A DNA stretch of 64,000 nucleotides from Candidatus Mycolicibacterium alkanivorans (GTDB taxonomy: Bacteria > Actinomycetota > Actinomycetes > Mycobacteriales > Mycobacteriaceae): the NCBI RefSeq assembly GCF_022760805.1, contig NZ_JAIVFL010000001.1, positions 3,472,001-3,536,000 of the forward strand, given 5' to 3'. Below, piece by piece: positions 38,840 through 46,482 of the stretch (position 1 is its first letter; every line of letters starts with the position of its first letter). A program made the translations under genes and the position numbers. The notes beneath the pieces were generated by a model. It had not been told where the DNA came from. It was given only the letters and a program-made list of their open reading frames with translations, and made no database searches.

Positions 38840-39124
38840 CTAGCGGCGTCCGCCCGGCACCGCATTGAACCCCGGCTGGGCGACTTCCGCCTCGTTGAGT
38901 TGGAACGGCGCGGGCGCTAGATCGTTCGGAGTGGCCACGATGTCAGGACTCGACTCCACCGGCGCCGACTGCGCACCGGGCGCAATGACCTCCGATGAAT
39001 CCTCCGGCCCCAGCTGCACTGGATTGCCCGTCGTCGGAATTTCACCCGGCACCCAGGCGAGGATGTCGCGAACACCGTCGTTCCACACGACGCTGTTGGG
39101 CACCTCGCCGACGACGTCGAAGTA
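38840..39124 (-). pseudogene. C-terminal half of a split DUF1942 (MPT63-like) gene
   Basis: Reading from 39124 on the minus strand: YFDVVGEVPNSVVWNDG, then RDILAWVPGE and an acidic Pro-rich tail. MPT63 ends KIYFDVTGPSPTIVAMNNG followed by MEDLLIWEP, so this is the same end of the same family. The N-terminal half, which stops at GKLYF, is at 46133-46482. Joining the two at the shared TACTTC (minus strand) restores one continuous reading frame across the junction. A GTG at 39103 could start a short product, but I regard this as a gene fragment. Confidence 0.8.
39119..39124 (+). repeat. Left 6-bp direct repeat of the island (GAAGTA)
   Basis: GAAGTA occurs exactly at the edge of the split DUF1942 gene and again at 46133-46138. 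Neighbouring bases differ on both sides, so the shared stretch is six bases. This is what a target-site duplication would look like. Chance microhomology cannot be ruled out for six bases. Confidence 0.65.
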
Positions 39125-39534
39125 GTTAGCACCGTGGGCGACTGGCGTTCGTAACGTTCGCGGTGAGCCCTCTGCCCAGCGTGACGAACGGACGGTATCG
39201 GTTACGTTCGCGAGGTTCGCAGAAAAGCGGATTTGCGGATCGCCCCTTTAAGAACTAGACCAATCCAGACTTTGCTAGCGGTCCTATCTGTACGGCTGTG
39301 CCCCACGGTGTAGAAGCGCCCGCGATGCCGATCAGCGGGTCTGACCCCAACGCACCGGTCACACGTAGTGAGCAACGGTGAACGCTTCTGCATAGCGTTA
39401 GTGGCGACCGCCGCGATCTCCAGATCGATCCGGGGGTCGTCGATCGGTATTGCTGAGCTAGTGGTTCAGTGAAGATTCAATGAAGAACGCGGCGTTTCGA
39501 TTCATCGCCTGGGTGGAGTCGGCATGATCGAGTC
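39125..39534. other. Gene-free left end of the island
   Basis: About 410 bases with no convincing gene. Near the end, CGTAACGTTCGCGG (about 39149) and GTTACGTTCGCGAGG (about 39201) are similar direct repeats some 50 bases apart and may be sites for a recombinase or for the original transposition machinery. The last ~60 bases probably hold the promoter for the Met-rich membrane protein. Confidence 0.4.
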
Positions 39535-39906
39535 ATGACCGAAACGCCCGAATCCCGGACCGAACCGACAGCGGTGGCCACCGAGCAGTGGCGCGGGGAG
39601 CTGTCACATGGATCCGACCGTCCCAACAGGCTCGCCCAGAGCGCGGCATGGGTGGGCATCGTTGCTGGTGTCGTGTTTATCGTCGCGGTGGTCTTCTTCT
39701 CCGGGTTCTTCGTCGGAAGGCAGTACGGCGGCGGTTACCGCGACGGGCGCGGAATGTACTACCCCGGCGGGATGATGGGGCCCGGCGGGATGATGGGGCC
39801 CGGCGGGATGATGGGCCCCGGATCGTCGGGACCTGGGATGATGGCCCCCGGTCAGCAGCTATCGCCGACGACAACTCCGGCCGTGCCCACCACGCCGCCT
39901 CGGTAG
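39535..39906 (+). CDS. Met-rich single-pass membrane protein with GGMMGP repeats
   Basis: 123 residues: a hydrophilic cytoplasmic start, one membrane helix (WVGIVAGVVFIVAVVFFSGF), then an extracytoplasmic tail with three tandem GGMMGP units, GPGMMAPG, and a Thr/Pro end. Paired methionines in Gly/Pro loops are typical of low-affinity Cu(I) or Ag(I) sites. The repeat is shared with two other proteins of the island (45018, 45773). No family assignment; I infer a metal-binding envelope role. The RBS is weak (TGGAG about 17 bases upstream). Confidence 0.7.
   Translation: MTETPESRTEPTAVATEQWRGELSHGSDRPNRLAQSAAWVGIVAGVVFIVAVVFFSGFFVGRQYGGGYRDGRGMYYPGGMMGPGGMMGPGGMMGPGSSGPGMMAPGQQLSPTTTPAVPTTPPR
39766..39819 (+). 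repeat. Three 18-bp tandem repeats coding GGMMGP
   Basis: GGCGGGATGATGGGGCCC is present at 39766-39783 and 39784-39801, and with one change at 39802-39819. Near-identity at DNA level points to recent expansion by slippage or unequal recombination within the Met-rich tail. Confidence 0.85.
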
Positions 39907-40097
39907 CCGTTTCAGCCTGGTTCGTTCGTGCAGGTCGGTTGTGGTCAGTTCGGCGTGAACCAAGGTGAAGATGTGTTCCGGCTTTGGCGGGGCCGCGTGC
40001 CACCCTTCCCGCCACGCGAGTTGGGCTGCACAACCCCAACCGCGGTGCTGCGATAGGGTGGTGGAGCCTGGCCAGGGCGTCGGCGAGGTGCTTCTTG

Positions 40098-40318
40098 CTA
40101 TTCGCGTCCGAAGAGTGGTTCGCCGTCGTTGCCTCCGAGCAGGAAGATGAACCGGTCAAGGTCGGCGCGGAGTTCGTCGGCGGTGCAGGCGGGATGACCG
40201 ACGTAGTGGGTCAGTGATGCGTCGAGGCGCCCGGTATCGGAGGCGAGCCAGTCGTTGACGAACTGCAGGAGCTCGGTCAACTCGACACATCGGCGATATC
40301 CAAGCGAATCTGCGGCAT
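40098..40318 (-). pseudogene. Small hypothetical gene with a frameshift
   Basis: An ATG at 40318 with GGAGG well placed upstream opens MPQIRLDIADVSS then stop. One base off, the frame continues LTELLQFVNDWLASDTG to DGEPLFGRE, ending at 40098. Adding one base restores a protein of about 73 residues that looks like a real globular acidic protein (ADELRADLDRFIFLLGG). I do not recognise the family. It lies in a 586-base interval between the Met-rich gene and the insertion sequence; the rest of that interval (39907-40097, 40319-40492) shows nothing. Confidence 0.5.
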
Positions 40319-40492
40319 AAACACGCCTCCGGATCGGGGTTGCCGTCGACGACGATCGGATTAGCGGCCTGACGAGTGCAGGTCGGCCTTTTGATTGCGG
40401 GTGTTCTCCAACAGCGTGGCCGGTGGCCTACCGCCAGCAGCACGCAATTGTCATCGTTCGCATGGCCGCACCCGTGACCCGGGGCGAGTTAG

Positions 40493-41809
40493 GGAGCGCG
40501 GAGTAATTAGGTGGGTTCTGTTGGGCGTGTCGCGGTGTGGTCGGCTGTGAGCGTGTAGTTCCAGTCGCCGTGGAATTCGTGACGGTGCAGTTGGGTGGCT
40601 TCGAGGGCGGCGATCTGCTTGTCGGTGATCTTGATGCCGCGCTCGTAGGTGGTGGTGTCAAGCACCGCGTTCACGGTCAGCCCGGTGGATGTGGTTGTTG
40701 CCCTGAGAGTTTCGATGACTACCTCGTGGGACTCCAGGGGTCGTCCGCGCCAGTTGCGGCTGATCGCGGAGAACAGCCGGTGTTCGATCTTGTTCCATTT
40801 GGAGGTGCCGGGCGGCAGGTGGCAGACCGTGATGTCGAGTCCGGCCTCGGTGGCGAAGGCGGCGAGTTCGGTTTTCCACAGCCGCAGCCGGGATCCGTTG
40901 GAGCCGCCGGAGTCGGCGGTGATCAGCAGCTTGTCCGAGCCGGGATAGCTGATGGCGCCCATCGTGGTCCACCAGCGGCGGATCGATTCCACCGCGAACG
41001 CGCCGGTGTCGGCGTCGGTGCCGACGTTGACCCAGCCGGTGTTGGCGGCGATGTCGTAGACCCCGTAGGGGGCCACCTTGCCCAGGGCCTTGTCGGCGAA
41101 GTCGTGCACCTGCACCTGCCGGGGTGACCCGGCGGGCTCCCATTCGCGGCCGGCAGCTGTGTAGTTGCCGACGAGTTCTTTCTTCTTGGTGTCCACGCTG
41201 ATCACCGGGTCCCCGTCGGCCTGGAATCCTTCGACGTGGGTGTTGAGATAGCCGAACTGCCCATCCCGATCCCGATGATGGGTGCCTTCCAGGGTTTTCG
41301 AGTTCGCCTGCAGGCTGTAACCAGCCTGTTTGAGCAGCTTGGCCACCGTCCGTGCGGACACCCGATGTCCCCTGGCGGTCAGCTCGGCGGCCAGCTTCGC
41401 CGTCGATTTGGTCGTCCACCGCAACGGCGACTCCGGATCACCACGGGTGACCGGATCCACCAGTGCGTCGAGCGCGGCGACCAGATCGGGGTCGGTCACC
41501 GCCATCGGCGGGCGCCCCGCACCCGGCCGGCGCACCCGCCCCGGAATCGGTTCGCCGGAATCCAACTCACGCACACCGGCCGCCACGGTATCCGGATGCA
41601 CCGCAGCGGCCGCCGCGACCAGCTTGATCCCGCCCCGACCCAGCACCTTGGCCTCCGCGCCGAGCAACAACCGCCACGCCCGCTCATCCAGATGCGGGCG
41701 GATCAACAACAAACGGGCGGCGACCGGATCGGAGTCCACAGCAGGCAGCGTCATACCACAAGTGTCGACAAACCAAACGGAAAAACCTAATCAATTACTG
41801 CGCGATTCC
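40493..41809 (-). mobile_element. ISAzo13-type insertion sequence
   Basis: The transposase gene is bordered by imperfect inverted ends: GGAGCGCGGAGTAATT at 40493 and, inward from 41809, GGAATCGCGCAGTAATT. TTAG is found directly outside both ends (40489-40492 and 41810-41813) and may be a target duplication. The right end touches the stop codon of the DUF302 gene. The element looks complete and is a later insertion into the island. Confidence 0.75.
40507..41754 (-). CDS. ISAzo13-family transposase
   Basis: 415 residues. An N-terminal helix-turn-helix region (GIKLVAAAAAVHPDTVAAG) precedes a DDE domain: ISVDTKKKELVGNY, LLITADSGGSNGSR and SKWNKIEHRLFSAI hold the candidate catalytic residues. These motifs match the ISAzo13 (Rhodopirellula-type) group as I recall it. 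No frameshift or stop is present, so the enzyme may be active. Confidence 0.9.
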   Translation of the reverse strand: MTLPAVDSDPVAARLLLIRPHLDERAWRLLLGAEAKVLGRGGIKLVAAAAAVHPDTVAAGVRELDSGEPIPGRVRRPGAGRPPMAVTDPDLVAALDALVDPVTRGDPESPLRWTTKSTAKLAAELTARGHRVSARTVAKLLKQAGYSLQANSKTLEGTHHRDRDGQFGYLNTHVEGFQADGDPVISVDTKKKELVGNYTAAGREWEPAGSPRQVQVHDFADKALGKVAPYGVYDIAANTGWVNVGTDADTGAFAVESIRRWWTTMGAISYPGSDKLLITADSGGSNGSRLRLWKTELAAFATEAGLDITVCHLPPGTSKWNKIEHRLFSAISRNWRGRPLESHEVVIETLRATTTSTGLTVNAVLDTTTYERGIKITDKQIAALEATQLHRHEFHGDWNYTLTADHTATRPTEPT

Positions 41810-42217
41810 TTAGGTGTGGTCGAGTGCGTCGATGACGGCTTGCAGTTTGGTGGTGACCTGTTCGGCGACCTGTGCCACTCCGGGTGCGTCGCTGAGCTCG
41901 GCCATCAGCGCGGGATTGATGGCATCGACGATGACGGTGTCGTTGCCGTGGGTGGTGTCGGCGCGCACGACGACGTTGCAGGGCAAGAGCAGCCCGATCT
42001 CGGGGTCGCTGAGCACGGCTTGATGCGCCAGGGGCGGGTTGCAGGCGCCCAGGATCAGATAATCGGCCATGTCGACGTCGAGTTTGGCCTTCATGGTGGC
42101 TTTCACGTCGATCTCGGTGAGCACCCCGAACCCGTGGTCGGCCAGGGCCGTTCGGGTTCGCGCGACCGCGTCGTCGAAGGAGGTGTGCAGTGTGGTTGAT
42201 AGTGCCAGTTTGGTCAT
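41810..42217 (-). CDS. DUF302 family protein
   Basis: 135 residues with the DUF302 pattern: SFDDAVARTRTALADHGFGV, then DMADYLILGACNPPLAHQ and GLLLPCNVVVR. Two cysteines (GACNP, LPCNV) are conserved in the family and could bind metal or sense redox state. The function is unknown; genes of this family commonly lie beside metal-efflux or sulfur genes. It is 17 bases downstream of the P-type ATPase and probably in the same operon. Confidence 0.88.
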   Translation of the reverse strand: MTKLALSTTLHTSFDDAVARTRTALADHGFGVLTEIDVKATMKAKLDVDMADYLILGACNPPLAHQAVLSDPEIGLLLPCNVVVRADTTHGNDTVIVDAINPALMAELSDAPGVAQVAEQVTTKLQAVIDALDHT

Positions 42218-42234
42218 CGTTGTCTCTTTCCTGC

Positions 42235-44217
42235 TCAGCGGTTTGCGGCGTTTCCGATCTCTGCAGTCGCCCGGCGGGTGCTCGCGCGGCGGCCGTTTGG
42301 TCGCGGGATCCCGGCTAGGGGTTGGGCGCGCCCGGCGCGGACACCGTTGGCGATAACGACGATCTCGGCGAGTTCGTGCACGAGCACCACGGCGGCCAGG
42401 CCGAGGACCCCGAGCAGGGCCAGGGGCAGCAGGATGGTGATGATCGCCAACGATAGGCCGATGTTTTGCAGCATGATGCGCCGGGATCGGCGGGCGTGGG
42501 ACAGCACTTGGGGCAGGTGGCGCAGGTCTTGGCCCATCATGGCGACGTCGGCGGTTTCGATGGCGACGTCAGTGCCCATGGCGCCCATCGCGATGCCGAG
42601 GTCGGCGGTGGCCAGGGCGGGGGCGTCGTTGACGCCGTCACCGACCATCGCGGTGGGCCGCCGGGAGCGCAGTTCCTCGATGATGCGGGCCTTGTCCTCG
42701 GGCCGCAGGTCAGCGTGCACGTCGTCGATGCCGGCGTCGGCGGCCAACGCCCGGGCGGTGCGCTCGTTGTCCCCGGTCAGCATCGCCACCTGGTAGCCGC
42801 GGGCGCGCAGCCCACCGATCACCTCGGCGGCTTCGGGTCGCAGCTCGTCGCGCACCGCCACCGCACCCAACACGGCACCGTCGCGTTCGACGAGCACCGC
42901 GGTTGCCCCGGCGCGCTGCATTCGGTCGATGACCTCGGCCAGCGGGCCGGGTTGGATCCAGCCGGGCCGCCCGAGCCGGACCGGACTTCCGTCCAGCCAG
43001 CCGGTGAGTCCGGCGCCGGTGGCCGATTCAACATTGTGCGCCGGGGTGACCTGATCGGCGGCGGCGAGGATGGCTGCGGCCAAGGGGTGTTCGCTGCGGG
43101 CCTCCAGCGCGGCGGCCACCGCCATCACTTCGGGGCGCGAAACCCCGTCGGCGGGTACTACGGTCATGACGGCGGGCTGGTTGCGGGTCAGGGTGCCGGT
43201 CTTGTCCAGGGCGATCGTGCGGATGCGGCCCAGGGCCTCCAGCGCGGCACCACCTTTGATGAGGACACCCATCTTGCTGGCGGCGCCGATCGCGGCGACC
43301 ACGGTCACTGGCACCGCGATCGCCAGCGCGCACGGTGAGGCCGCGACCAGTACCACCAGCGCCCGTTCGATCCACACCCGCGGATCCCCGACCAGGCTGC
43401 CGATCACGGCGATGATTACGGCGGCGACCATGATCGCGGGCACCAGCGGGCTGGCGACCCGGTCGGCCAGGCGTTGGCTAGAACCCTGGCGGGCCTGCTC
43501 GGCCTCCACAATCTGAACGATCCGAGCCAGCGAGTTGTCGGTGGCGGTGGCGGTGATCTCCACGTCGAGAACCCCGGCGCCGTTGATTGAGCCGGCGAAC
43601 ACCGCATCACCGGGGCCTGCTTCGATCGGCACCGACTCCCCAGTGATCGCCGAGGTGTTCAGCGCGCTGCGCCCCGCGGTGATCACGCCATCGGTGGCGA
43701 TCCGCTCCCCGGGTTTGACCACCATCACCTCGCCCACGGCGAGTTCCGTTGGGGAGACAGGGTATTCGCGCCCACCGCGGCGCACCGTGGCGACGGCGGG
43801 GACCAGCGACAGCAGCGCCCGCAAGCCTCGGCGGGTACGGGTGATCGAGTACTCCTCGAGGCCCTCGCTGATCGCGAACAAAAACGCCAGCATCGCGGCC
43901 TCGCCGACCTCACCGAGGGCCACCGCACCGACTGCGGCGATCGTCATCAGGGTGCCGACACCGATCTTGCCCGCCGCCAATCGCTTCAGAGTGGACGGGA
44001 CGAAGGTGGCGCCGGCGATGATCAGCGCCGCGGCCTCCACAACCAGCGTCACCGGCGCGGGTCCGCCGGCCCAGCCCACGATCAGCCCCGCCAGCAGCAG
44101 CACCCCGGCCAGAGCGGCAGCCCGGATCTCGCTGACCTGCCACAGTTTCTCCGGGCCCCGCTCGCGCTCATCGCGGTCGGGACCGGAATCGTCGTGGCCG
44201 CAGCAGGTGTCACTCAC
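42235..44217 (-). CDS. P1B-type heavy-metal-translocating ATPase (CtpG/CadA-like)
   Basis: 660 residues. The transport motif is SPCALAIAVPV, phosphorylation site DKTGTLT near residue 337, actuator TGESVPIE and nucleotide-hinge GDGVNDAPAL. No N-terminal HMA domain; instead a short CCGHDD metal-binding start. The C-terminal helix HELAEIVVIANGVRAGR lacks the Cu(I)-type YN/MxxS residues and resembles CtpG/CadA pumps, favouring Zn, Cd or Pb. The CmtR-like gene 28 bases upstream supports this. The copper-type neighbours leave Cu/Ag open. Confidence 0.93.
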   Translation of the reverse strand: MSDTCCGHDDSGPDRDERERGPEKLWQVSEIRAAALAGVLLLAGLIVGWAGGPAPVTLVVEAAALIIAGATFVPSTLKRLAAGKIGVGTLMTIAAVGAVALGEVGEAAMLAFLFAISEGLEEYSITRTRRGLRALLSLVPAVATVRRGGREYPVSPTELAVGEVMVVKPGERIATDGVITAGRSALNTSAITGESVPIEAGPGDAVFAGSINGAGVLDVEITATATDNSLARIVQIVEAEQARQGSSQRLADRVASPLVPAIMVAAVIIAVIGSLVGDPRVWIERALVVLVAASPCALAIAVPVTVVAAIGAASKMGVLIKGGAALEALGRIRTIALDKTGTLTRNQPAVMTVVPADGVSRPEVMAVAAALEARSEHPLAAAILAAADQVTPAHNVESATGAGLTGWLDGSPVRLGRPGWIQPGPLAEVIDRMQRAGATAVLVERDGAVLGAVAVRDELRPEAAEVIGGLRARGYQVAMLTGDNERTARALAADAGIDDVHADLRPEDKARIIEELRSRRPTAMVGDGVNDAPALATADLGIAMGAMGTDVAIETADVAMMGQDLRHLPQVLSHARRSRRIMLQNIGLSLAIITILLPLALLGVLGLAAVVLVHELAEIVVIANGVRAGRAQPLAGIPRPNGRRASTRRATAEIGNAANR

Positions 44218-44245
44218 AGGCAGACCCCGATGCGCCGGCGGTGCC

Positions 44246-44593
44246 TTAATTGGGGCACAACGCGACCGCGTTGCCGGTGGCCATCAGCAGTGTTTCGGCC
44301 GCCACCAACAGATCGAGCAGTTCCGGGCGGGTCAACGAGTAGAACACCTGCCGTCCCTGCGGACGGCCCGCCACCAGACCGCACTCGCGCAGACACCCCA
44401 CATGCGCCGACACCGTCGACTGGGCCAACCCCAACTCCGTCACCAGGTCGGCCACCCGGGCCTCCCCGCGAGCCAACCGGCCCACGATCGCCAACCGGGT
44501 GCCGTCCGAGAGGCCACGGAACAACGCCACCGCCGCATCCAGACCCGACCCGGATGGTGATCCGGCCAGACAACCCGCACTATCAATCGTCAT
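44246..44593 (-). CDS. CmtR-like ArsR/SmtB family metal repressor
   Basis: 115 residues. Winged helix with SDGTRLAIVGRLARGEARVAD and recognition helix AQSTVSAHVGCLRECGLV. The paired cysteines in GCLREC plus a C-terminal cysteine (VALCPN) copy the C57/C61/C102 sensor of M. tuberculosis CmtR, which binds Cd(II) and Pb(II). The ATG at 44593 follows a TATTAT -10 by six bases, so the mRNA may be leaderless. It is first in the operon with the ATPase and DUF302. Confidence 0.88.
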   Translation of the reverse strand: MTIDSAGCLAGSPSGSGLDAAVALFRGLSDGTRLAIVGRLARGEARVADLVTELGLAQSTVSAHVGCLRECGLVAGRPQGRQVFYSLTRPELLDLLVAAETLLMATGNAVALCPN

Positions 44594-44628
44594 ACAGCGA
44601 TAATACTGTGCGTTGGCCGGTAATACCG
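44594..44628 (-). promoter_or_regulatory. Promoter and candidate operator of the metal operon
   Basis: On the minus strand TATTAT (44600-44605) lies six bases before the ATG, fitting a leaderless transcript. ACAG-N8-CTGT (44594-44609) forms an inverted repeat around this -10, and CGGTA-A-TACCG (44618-44628) is a second exact palindrome just upstream. Either could bind the CmtR-like repressor. Confidence 0.5.
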
Positions 44629-44745
44629 AAACGCACCGATGGTTGAGGACCATCGGCCCTACCGGGTCGTGGCACTGTCCGCGCAGGCTGGCCTGAGCAA
44701 CTCACGTTGCCGGGCTTGGTAATTCAAGGCGAAAGGTGCGCGACC

Positions 44746-45012
44746 ATGATGTATGACGGCTGGGGCTGGGGTGGCATGGGATCAGGCGGCTGGATCCTGA
44801 TGACCGTGGTAATGGTGCTGTTCTGGGCGGCGGTGATCACCGCCGTGGTCCTGGCCATCCTCTACCTGACCGGTCCGCGGCACACCAGCGCGCACCCGCC
44901 CGGACCGGGGCCGGCCCGCGCTGAAGGTCTGCTCGCCGAACGCTTCGCCCGCGGCGAGATCGACGAAGACGAATACCAGCGGCGCATGACGCTGCTGCGC
45001 GAACACCGCTGA
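44746..45012 (+). CDS. SHOCT-domain single-pass membrane protein
   Basis: 88 residues. The start MMYDGWGWGGMGSGG is Met/Trp/Gly-rich; a membrane helix follows (TVVMVLFWAAVITAVVLAIL), then a SHOCT domain (AEGLLAERFARGEIDEDEYQRR) at the cytoplasmic end. SHOCT proteins of this form are common beside copper and other metal genes in actinobacteria. It lies on the plus strand, divergent from the CmtR-like operon, five bases before the cupredoxin gene. Confidence 0.85.
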   Translation: MMYDGWGWGGMGSGGWILMTVVMVLFWAAVITAVVLAILYLTGPRHTSAHPPGPGPARAEGLLAERFARGEIDEDEYQRRMTLLREHR

Positions 45013-45017
45013 CCGCG

Positions 45018-45760
45018 ATGCGCTCCCACCGCCTCTGGCTGGTCTTGGCCATCGCGATCGCATCGGTGATCCTCGGGGTCGCGACTACCGCGATCTGGTA
45101 CACCGGCGGGCCGTTCGGCCGCCAAACACCCGTCTCCGCCAACGCCCCCTACCCGAACGCCCCCGGCGCCTGGGGCCCGGGCATGATGGGCCCCAGGCGG
45201 TACCCGGCCGCCCCGCCGCCGTCCTGTTCCGCGCCGGCGCTACCGGGCGCGGTGGTTGACGTCACCGTCACCGACATGGGAGCGATGATGGGGCCGGGCA
45301 TGATGGGCCGCGGCGGCATGATGGGGCCGGGCTGGAACGGCCCGAACGGCGCGAACGGCCCGGGGCAAACCGGCTACCGATACCCGGGCATGGGGATGAT
45401 GCGCATCGTCGTCACCCCAGCCTCCGTTCCGGCGGGCCCGGTGTCGTTGCGGGTACTCAACACCGGCGGGTTGAGCCACGAACTCGTCGTGCTGCCCCTG
45501 GCACAGGGCCAATACCCCGGGTGGCGTGTCACCGGCCCGGACGGCAAGGTCGACGAGTCCGGCAGCCTGGGTGAGGCCTCCCGCACCTGCGGCGCCGACA
45601 AAGGTGACGACCAGTCACCCAATACGGCATCGCCCCTGGCGGCACCGGCTGGACCACCATCACCCTGACCCCGGGACGCTACGAGCTGATCTGCAACATC
45701 GCCGGCCACTACTGGGCCGGGATGTATGCCGAACTCGACGTCACCGGCCCACCCAAATAA
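45018..45760 (+). pseudogene. Cupredoxin (sulfocyanin/plastocyanin-like) with a frameshift
   Basis: A membrane anchor (LWLVLAIAIASVILGVATT) is followed by Met-rich loops (GPGMMGP, GAMMGPGMMGRGGMMGPG) and a cupredoxin domain. Type 1 copper ligands can be placed: H in GLSHELVVLP, then C, H and M in ELICNIAGHYWAGM. The last three are in a different frame from the start. The shift lies near 45600-45625; removing 17 bases at 45609-45625 restores KGDGIAPGGTGW, a normal junction. Either a real inactivating indel or a sequencing error. The end would be TAA at 45758. Confidence 0.8.
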
Positions 45761-45772
45761 GTGAGACGAACC

Positions 45773-46123
45773 ATGTTCGCCAGACGTGCAACGATCACCA
45801 CCGCGACCATCCTCGCGCTAGCCGGATCGGTCGCAATCGGGCTCAGCGGCGGCGAGACGACCACCACCCTCGCGCAACCCTCAGGCGGGGTTTCATCGAC
45901 GAGCGGGCCCGCGCTGCCGGTCCAGGGCCCATGGGACCAGTGCTGGGGACCCAACGGCTGGGACCCCAATTGCTGGGGACCCGGACCATGGGGTCCTGGA
46001 CAGTACGGACCGGGCATGATGGGTCCCGGCGGATACGGCGGACCGGGCATGATGGGCCCGGGACCGTGGGGCCCTGGACAGTGGGGGTCGGGCATGATGG
46101 GCCCCGGGCCGTGGGATTACTAA
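45773..46123 (+). CDS. Secreted Met/Trp/Gly/Pro-rich protein with GPGMMGPG repeats
   Basis: 116 residues. Signal peptide (ITTATILALAGSVAIGLS) then a mature region composed almost wholly of Trp, Gly, Pro and Met with GPWDQCWGPNGWDPNCWG and three GMMGPG units. The two cysteines and the Met pairs suggest soft-metal binding. No known family. The stop is nine bases from the right end of the island. A GTG at 45761 directly after the cupredoxin stop would add four residues; neither start has a strong RBS. Confidence 0.7.
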   Translation: MFARRATITTATILALAGSVAIGLSGGETTTTLAQPSGGVSSTSGPALPVQGPWDQCWGPNGWDPNCWGPGPWGPGQYGPGMMGPGGYGGPGMMGPGPWGPGQWGSGMMGPGPWDY

Positions 46124-46132
46124 CTAACTAAG

Positions 46133-46138
46133 GAAGTA
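46133..46138 (+). repeat. Right 6-bp direct repeat of the island (GAAGTA)
   Basis: Second copy of the hexamer found at 39119-39124. On the minus strand it is TACTTC, encoding the Tyr-Phe at which the DUF1942 reading frame is interrupted. Confidence 0.65.
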
Positions 46139-46482
46139 CAACTTGCCCATGTTCGATGCACCCCAGATGGCAGGGTAGAAGGCGCCGGATTGTGCCCGGG
46201 CCCCGAAGCGCTCGATCATCGGGAGGGCGCCACCGCCAAACCCGTCGACCACCAGTTGGGCGGCCGCGTACAACGTGCCGTTGTGCAGCACCGGATCGCT
46301 GCTCGGCGCCAGCTTCTTCACCGTATAGCCGATGACGGGAGTCCGTTGGGACCGTTCAGCGTTTCCTGCTCGCCGAAGATCCGGATGTTGTCCGTCGCCC
46401 ACGCCGGGGGCACGGTGGCGGCGCCGATGCCGATCGTGATGACGCAGGCGGCAACAGCTCCAGCCAGCTTCGTGACGTTCAT
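46133..46482 (-). pseudogene. N-terminal half of the split DUF1942 (MPT63-like) gene
   Basis: ATG at 46482 begins a signal peptide (KLAGAVAACVITIGIG...PPAWA) and NIRIFGEQETLNGPNG. After an apparent one-base deletion near 46343 the frame continues GYTVKKLAPSSDPVL, then ARAQSGAFYPAIWGASN and MGKLYF, where it meets the island; nine more bases inside the island give a stop at 46124. The matching C-terminal half lies at 38840-39124. The family comprises small secreted immunoglobulin-like proteins of mycobacteria such as MPT63. Confidence 0.8.

What the first reader, a model, noticed from the sequence alone, without database searches (positions are those of the whole stretch)
38840..46482. A DUF1942/MPT63-like gene is split by a 7.0-kb insertion with 6-bp direct repeats
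Two fragments 7 kb apart on the minus strand are complementary parts of one gene. The N-terminal part stops at GKLYF and the C-terminal part resumes YFDVVGEV, exactly where MPT63 reads KIYFDV. Both junctions carry GAAGTA (39119-39124 and 46133-46138). Joining them removes 39125-46132 and restores the frame across the junction. This defines the ends of the island to the base and shows that it arrived by insertion.
Basis: partly seen in the sequence, partly recalled or inferred. Interest (0 to 1): 0.82.

Follow-up and report, generated by a model that had tools for sequence, protein, structure and literature searches.

The report
Transposon remnant in an MPT63-like gene
A 7-kb metal-resistance island in a mycobacterial genome is the crippled remnant of a site-specific transposon whose intact relatives have landed several times inside members of the same secreted-protein gene family.

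Summary
Three same-genus relatives carry the uninterrupted DUF1942 (MPT63-like) gene between the same two neighbours. The window's two flanks, searched apart, overlap on those empty sites by exactly six bases, GAAGTA. The island, 39125-46132, is an insertion.

The mechanism is more specific than a target duplication. Relative G398 carries the same left end (96-97%) and cargo (83-92%), also inside a DUF1942 gene, with a Tn554-like set of two tyrosine recombinases and a DUF6262-like protein. In a TnpA tree one supported group of ten holds eight elements assigned to DUF1942 genes, at three positions; two are unresolved. In 3 of 7 readable pairs the two 6-bp copies differ, as a recombinase spacer allows.

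The window copy lacks the recombinases and nearly all of its right end; no TnpB match was found in its genome. The host's only DUF1942 matches are the two pieces of this gene, which also has its own frameshift.

Verdict: new variant of a known kind, an actinobacterial Tn554-related transposon with a target family that my literature searches did not find described.

The parts
38840..39124 (-). C-terminal piece of the interrupted DUF1942/MPT63-like gene (resumes at Y-F-D-V)
   Evidence: PF09167 profile 95-123; one search match to intact genes L002-L004
39119..39124 (.). left copy of the 6-bp spacer GAAGTA
39125..39366 (+). P end of the transposon (starts GTTAGC); 96-97% identical to the G398 end; first ~110 bases alignable in ten copies, the window's included
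39535..39906 (+). cargo ORF, hydrophobic stretch plus Gly-Met-Pro-rich repeats
   Evidence: lies in DNA 83% (G398) to 94% (G259) identical; no Pfam family
40489..41813 (-). nested ISAzo13-family insertion sequence, transposase 40507-41754; not the vehicle of the island
   Evidence: NF033519, 562 bits; copies elsewhere in the genome define its ends
41810..42217 (-). cargo: DUF302 protein
42235..44217 (-). cargo: heavy-metal P-type ATPase
   Evidence: TIGR01525, TIGR01512; best-scoring solved chain 7qbz
44246..44653 (-). cargo: ArsR/SmtB-type metalloregulator, CmtR-like but below that model's cutoff
44707..45012 (+). cargo: short SHOCT-domain protein
45018..45668 (+). cargo: cupredoxin-like protein (label is inference), 216 aa against 248 aa in G398, without the G398 C-terminal end
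   Evidence: no family
45761..46123 (+). cargo: Gly-Met-Pro-Trp-rich small protein; the cargo block shared with G398 ends at 46124
46128..46132 (-). right end: CTTAG read inward, all that is recognisable of the Q end
46133..46138 (.). right copy of the 6-bp spacer GAAGTA
46133..46482 (-). N-terminal piece of the DUF1942 gene (to G-K-L-Y-F), with an internal frameshift near 46336-46339

Best explanation
The island is a defective derivative of a Tn554-related transposon. Intact relatives carry tnpA and tnpB (an ordinary and an abnormally long tyrosine recombinase) and tnpC (DUF6262-like), between two ends that begin with one variable base and TTAG next to a 6-bp spacer. The recombinases exchange strands across the spacer inside DUF1942 genes: at codons Y-F before D-V (window, G398, G166, G184), at S-N before L-N or the equivalent codons (G402, G200, G144, G196), or further upstream (G380). 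The window copy arrived by this route with a metal-efflux cargo. It then lost, or was mobilised in trans without, tnpABC and the Q end. An ISAzo13-family element landed in the cargo and the host gene decayed. Shown: empty sites, both boundaries, the shared end and cargo, relatives in the same gene family, the recombinase group. Inferred: the strand-exchange chemistry, the order of loss, and that the cargo exports metal.
For: Empty sites with exactly 6-bp overlap in 3 of 3 relatives. G398 holds the left end at 97% over 176 bases and the cargo at 83% (39367-40493) and 92% (41810-46115), inside a DUF1942 gene split at the same codons, with tnpA, tnpB and tnpC. Ten P ends align from base 1. The eight elements with a TnpA assigned to DUF1942 genes lie in one supported group of 10 of 27 TnpA rows, sites 1 and 2 in separate subgroups. 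The G402 and G398 target genes are 92% identical over 98 residues but hit at different codons, and in G200 one Q end runs into two different DUF1942 genes. Spacer copies differ in 3 of 7 readable pairs: G398, G144, G196; a 6-bp footprint copied from the donor flank is described for SEs and Tn554-related elements in PMC10214605 (passages).
Against: The window copy has no recombinase and only 5 bases of a Q end, so its assignment rests on the P end, the target, the spacer and the cargo. Targeting is not exclusive, or not always visible: of 13 genomes with a P-end match, 8 have it at a split DUF1942 gene; G306 has a clear P end (88% over 99 bases) with no DUF1942 gene or tnp gene in the 16 kb fetched around it, and G378, G395, G087 and G385 show none either. 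Two rows of the TnpA group (G380:C254, G370) could not be placed in a DUF1942 gene. Spacer differences could be later mutations, and G166 and G398 are composite loci. TnpC scores below the Pfam cutoff for DUF6262 (24.3 and 24.7 against 29 bits). Movement was not observed.
Confidence: 0.86

Rival explanations
1. A DDE transposon made a conventional 6-bp target duplication.
For: The two 6-bp copies in the window are identical and equal the empty site.
Against: The only DDE transposase recognised is the nested ISAzo13-family one, which has its own ends. No inverted repeat joining the island's two ends is among the 25 longest of 72 pairs listed. The homologous element in G398 encodes tyrosine recombinases. 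Three of seven readable spacer pairs are unequal.
Confidence: 0.06
2. The ISAzo13-family element carried or shaped the island as a composite transposon.
For: It is the only transposase recognised in the island and has near-identical copies elsewhere in the genome.
Against: There is one copy, internal, at 40489-41813, and its ends are those seen at two other loci of the genome. The homologous cargo in G398 and G259 is continuous across that point without it.
Confidence: 0.02
3. The island is a non-autonomous passenger that already lacked tnpABC when it entered, mobilised in trans through a P end and a cryptic GTTAG at the end of the cargo, rather than an intact transposon that decayed in place. 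(This is a variant of the best explanation, not exclusive of it.)
For: The cargo end in G398 reads GTTAGTAATCC inward, and the window's right border is CTTAG-TTAG-TTAGTAATCC at the exact spacer boundary. No TnpB match in the genome.
Against: A simple deletion with TTAG microhomology explains the same sequence. No sister insertion of this short form was recognised among the 13 of 396 genomes with a P-end match, though not every one of these was read through.
Confidence: 0.35

Closest known systems
Actinobacterial Tn554-related transposons (Van Houdt et al. 2012, PMC3414803; abstract and passages seen)
   Same: One abnormally long and one ordinary tyrosine recombinase, often with a TnpC-like third gene, in mycobacteria and other actinobacteria
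   Different: The passages seen suggest attB sites for these elements but do not identify them; here one group lies largely in DUF1942 genes, and the window copy has lost all three genes
Tn554/Tn558 of staphylococci and enterococci
   Same: Order of recombinase, longer recombinase, DUF6262 protein in an enterococcal plasmid element beside a JAB-domain gene and fexA (Tn558-like is my label); for Tn558 a duplicated hexanucleotide inside radC (passage of PMC9616846)
   Different: About 23% identity in TnpA; DUF1942 instead of radC; metal instead of antibiotic cargo
SEs, strand-biased circularizing integrative elements (PMC10214605, passages)
   Same: Two tyrosine recombinases, short imperfect inverted ends, a 6-bp spacer whose border copies have different origins
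   Different: SEs have four core genes and are described from Gammaproteobacteria
MPT63 (PDB 1lmi)
   Same: An intact relative of the interrupted gene matches it at E 6e-11, and site 1 falls at its K-I-Y-F-D-V stretch
   Different: The window gene is a diverged family member, broken by the island and by a frameshift

Membership tests
Tn554-related transposons | two adjacent tyrosine recombinases, one abnormally long | tested here: met
   in relatives: G166 TnpA (415 aa) and TnpB (891 aa) and G398 TnpA have Phage_integrase; G398 TnpB by 84% identity. The window copy has none
Tn554-related transposons | TnpC (DUF6262) as third gene | tested here: inconclusive
   PF19776 at 24.3 and 24.7 bits, below the 29-bit cutoff; the enterococcal element carries an annotated DUF6262 protein in the same place
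Tn554-related transposons | sequence homology of TnpA to staphylococcal/enterococcal elements | tested here: met
   about 23% identity over 87-90% of TnpA, E 2e-9 to 4e-9; weak. No Tn554 model matched in NCBIfam
Tn554-related transposons | 6-bp spacer at both borders | tested here: met
   window and six relatives
Tn554-related transposons | preferred insertion site | tested here: met
   8 of 10 rows of the TnpA group are assigned to DUF1942 genes, 2 of 10 unresolved; 8 of 13 genomes with a P-end match
Tn554-related transposons | transposition dependent on TnpABC | not testable with these tools
   needs an experiment
DUF1942/MPT63 family (target gene) | PF09167 match above cutoff | tested here: met
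   both pieces; N piece only
ISAzo13-family composite transposon | two flanking IS copies or island bounded by IS ends | tested here: not met
   single internal copy

The most novel reading that the evidence does not exclude
A subfamily of Tn554-related transposons uses the mycobacterial DUF1942 (MPT63) gene family as its main landing pad, has shifted between at least three codon positions in the family as its recombinases diverged, and so silences secreted-protein genes while spreading metal-resistance and other cargo among species.
Probability: 0.56. Interest if true: 0.68.

Novelty: new variant of a known kind. Interest (0 to 1): 0.58.

Why it matters
It gives target sites to a group of actinobacterial transposons whose attachment sites are not identified in the passages I read, and offers matched pairs (near-identical genes hit at two codons by two subgroups) for studying how such recombinases choose and change targets. 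It explains some broken MPT63-family genes in mycobacteria, which matters where that family serves as antigen or marker, and it names a vehicle for metal-efflux cargo between species.

Tried and rejected
The plasmid search with the region found 143 records; the 20 rows shown all match the ATPase/ArsR block at about 79-80%, in Rhodococcus and Prescottella, and none of the 143 covers 80% of the query. The ISAzo13-family element as vehicle was rejected. Truncated DUF1942 genes in G002 and G014 looked like possible further insertions, but no tnp gene was found in the 12-13 kb fetched around each and I saw no element end before the fragment. TnpB relatives outside the group (G378, G395, G230 twice, G402:C48, G418) had no DUF1942 match beside them; G395 and G402:C48 seem to share another flank sequence, not followed. 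A pattern scan for P-like ends in 14 loci found two, neither at a DUF1942 gene. tRNA as target: none in the window. Rows left out of the tree: G187 (short TnpA match), G144:C91 (no TnpA match seen) and the six plasmid records with a TnpB relative, among them an M. abscessus plasmid with 69% TnpA identity whose target I did not examine. In one search the G144 row of the Q-end list was wrongly extracted; its Q end was read.
Full report
Observation. In a search of the host genome G000, PF09167 gives two matches, the two pieces, at profile positions 7-80 and 95-123; in the Pfam scan of the pieces alone only the N piece is recognised. Of 61 genomes searched with the right flank, three relatives (G003, G004, G024) hold a long match, and each has an uninterrupted gene between the same two neighbouring genes (the dacB2 name is recalled and was not tested). 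Left and right flanks were aligned separately; they overlap by exactly six bases in 3 of 3 (the right edge in L002 and L004 rests on tblastx), reading TACTTC on the gene strand. An intact copy matches MPT63 (PDB 1lmi, E 6e-11), and the insertion point falls at its K-I-Y-F-D-V stretch. The N-terminal piece also has a frameshift near 46336-46339.

What the island is. A search of 396 same-genus genomes with the left 1364 bases of the island found G398, where window 39125-39366 (96%) and 39367-40493 (83%) are both present but about 4.2 kb apart, and where 41810-46115 is 92% identical. In G398 the stretch lies inside a DUF1942 gene: the N-terminal piece ends at G-K-V-Y-F and runs into the element, the C-terminal piece resumes at Y-F-D-V. 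Between them lie tnpA (Phage_integrase), tnpB (84% identical to that of G166) and a DUF6262-like tnpC. This is the gene set of Tn554-related transposons, described from actinobacteria, mycobacteria included (PMC3414803, abstract and passages).

The ends. The left end (called P here) begins with a variable base and TTAG and is alignable over about 110 bases in ten copies, the window's included. The other end (called Q) begins (C/A)TTAGC in G398, G166, G184, G402, G200 and G196 and in G144. The window keeps P but has only CTTAG at its right border, followed by the end of the cargo. In G398 the cargo end reads GTTAGTAATCC inward and is followed by about 340 bases and then tnpC. The window has therefore lost tnpABC and the rest of Q, either by deletion at the TTAG repeat or because the recombinase took the GTTAG of the cargo as an end. 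No TnpB match at E 1e-40 was found in G000, so the copy is probably immobile.

The target. PF09167 was searched in 26 genomes, 24 of them chosen for a TnpB relative, plus G000 and G306. Split or contig-edge DUF1942 genes adjoin elements in G398, G166, G184 (site 1, Y-F before D-V), in G402 (M. canariasense), G200 (M. sp. shizuoka-1), G144 (M. gordonae), G196 (site 2, S-N before L-N or the equivalent codons) and in G380 (MAG; a third position, one side only). On one contig are G398, G166, G184, G402 and G196; G144 is spread over two contigs; in G200 the link between tnp genes and target is inferred from contig ends. Recurrence is shown by two cases: the G398 and G402 genes are 92% identical over 98 residues but are hit at different codons, and in G200 the same Q end runs into two different DUF1942 genes. 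Genomes with PF09167 have 1-6 matches, pieces included (60 of 61 genomes), so repeated chance hits are very unlikely; no formal probability was computed.

Against exclusive targeting. A search with the P end found 13 of 396 genomes. Eight of them have it at a DUF1942 gene (G000, G398, G166, G184, G402, G200, G196, G380:C427). G306 has a P end at 88% over 99 bases without DUF1942 or tnp genes in the 16 kb fetched; G378 and G395 have tnp genes but no DUF1942 gene beside them; G087 and G385 gave hits of 22-27 bases only, without DUF1942 or tnp matches in the stretches fetched; a second G380 match (C254) is unresolved.

Tree. TnpB relatives at E 1e-40 occur in 24 of 396 genomes. In a TnpA tree of 27 rows (midpoint root, for drawing only) a branch with support 99/99 sets apart ten rows: the eight assigned to DUF1942 genes and two (G380:C254, G370) that could not be resolved. 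The three site-1 rows with G370 form one group (100/99), the four site-2 rows another (97/94). Of the other 17 rows none was seen inside a DUF1942 gene; G302 has an intact one about 5 kb away, G234 lies on a short contig, and Nocardia fusca was checked only by tblastn.

The six bases. In seven insertions both borders are readable. Four pairs are identical (window, G166, G184, G402) and three differ: G398 GAAATA/GAAGTA, G144 TCCAAT/TCCAAC, G196 CCGGAC/CCGAAT. An exact target duplication would start with equal copies; the scheme described for SEs and Tn554-related elements places one copy from the donor flank (PMC10214605, passages). Later mutation cannot be excluded. In G166 and G398 the inserted stretch contains a second, tnpA-proximal end, so those loci are tandem or composite and their outer borders may stem from different events.

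Cargo. A heavy-metal P-type ATPase (TIGR01525/TIGR01512; best-scoring solved chain 7qbz), an ArsR/SmtB regulator, DUF302 and SHOCT proteins and Gly-Met-Pro-rich small proteins. Metal efflux is an inference from these families; the metal is not known. Most of the block occurs without the P end in G024, G259 and G311, so it moves by other routes too. An ISAzo13-family element sits in it at 40489-41813.

Literature. Eight searches. DUF1942 with integrase: 0 papers. DUF1942 alone: 1 paper, seen as a listing. Tn554 with Mycobacteri and insertion site: 2 papers, of which passages were read. A Tn554-like island is mentioned for M. brisbanense (PMC4816395, passage); the passage names no target. I found no report of this target in those searches; subscription journals are largely not covered.

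Noticed in passing
window 46336-46339: Frameshift inside the N-terminal DUF1942 piece, separate from the island.
   Followed up: partly
window 45018-45668: The cupredoxin-like cargo protein is shorter than its G398 homologue and lacks its C-terminal stretch; a similar block (68-74% in three pieces) lies at G000:C1:1916772-1918055.
   Followed up: no
window 40489-41813: ISAzo13-family element with two near-identical (99.6%) copies elsewhere in G000; TTAG at both ends in all three.
   Followed up: partly
L196 and L197 (G200 contigs C49, C48): The same Q end followed by two different DUF1942 genes, suggesting two copies of one element in paralogous targets of one genome.
   Followed up: partly
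L080 2804-13919 (M. iranicum H39): A second tnpA-proximal end inside the DUF1942 insertion, suggesting two units in tandem.
   Followed up: no
L143 and L146 (G395, G402:C48): Two elements outside the group are preceded by similar flank sequence, perhaps another shared target gene.
   Followed up: no
L073 5812 (G306): A solitary P end, 88% over 99 bases, with no DUF1942 or tnp gene seen in the 16 kb fetched.
   Followed up: partly
G000 genome: The only PF09167 matches in the host genome are the two pieces of this broken gene, whereas 35 of 35 related genomes searched have at least one match.
   Followed up: yes
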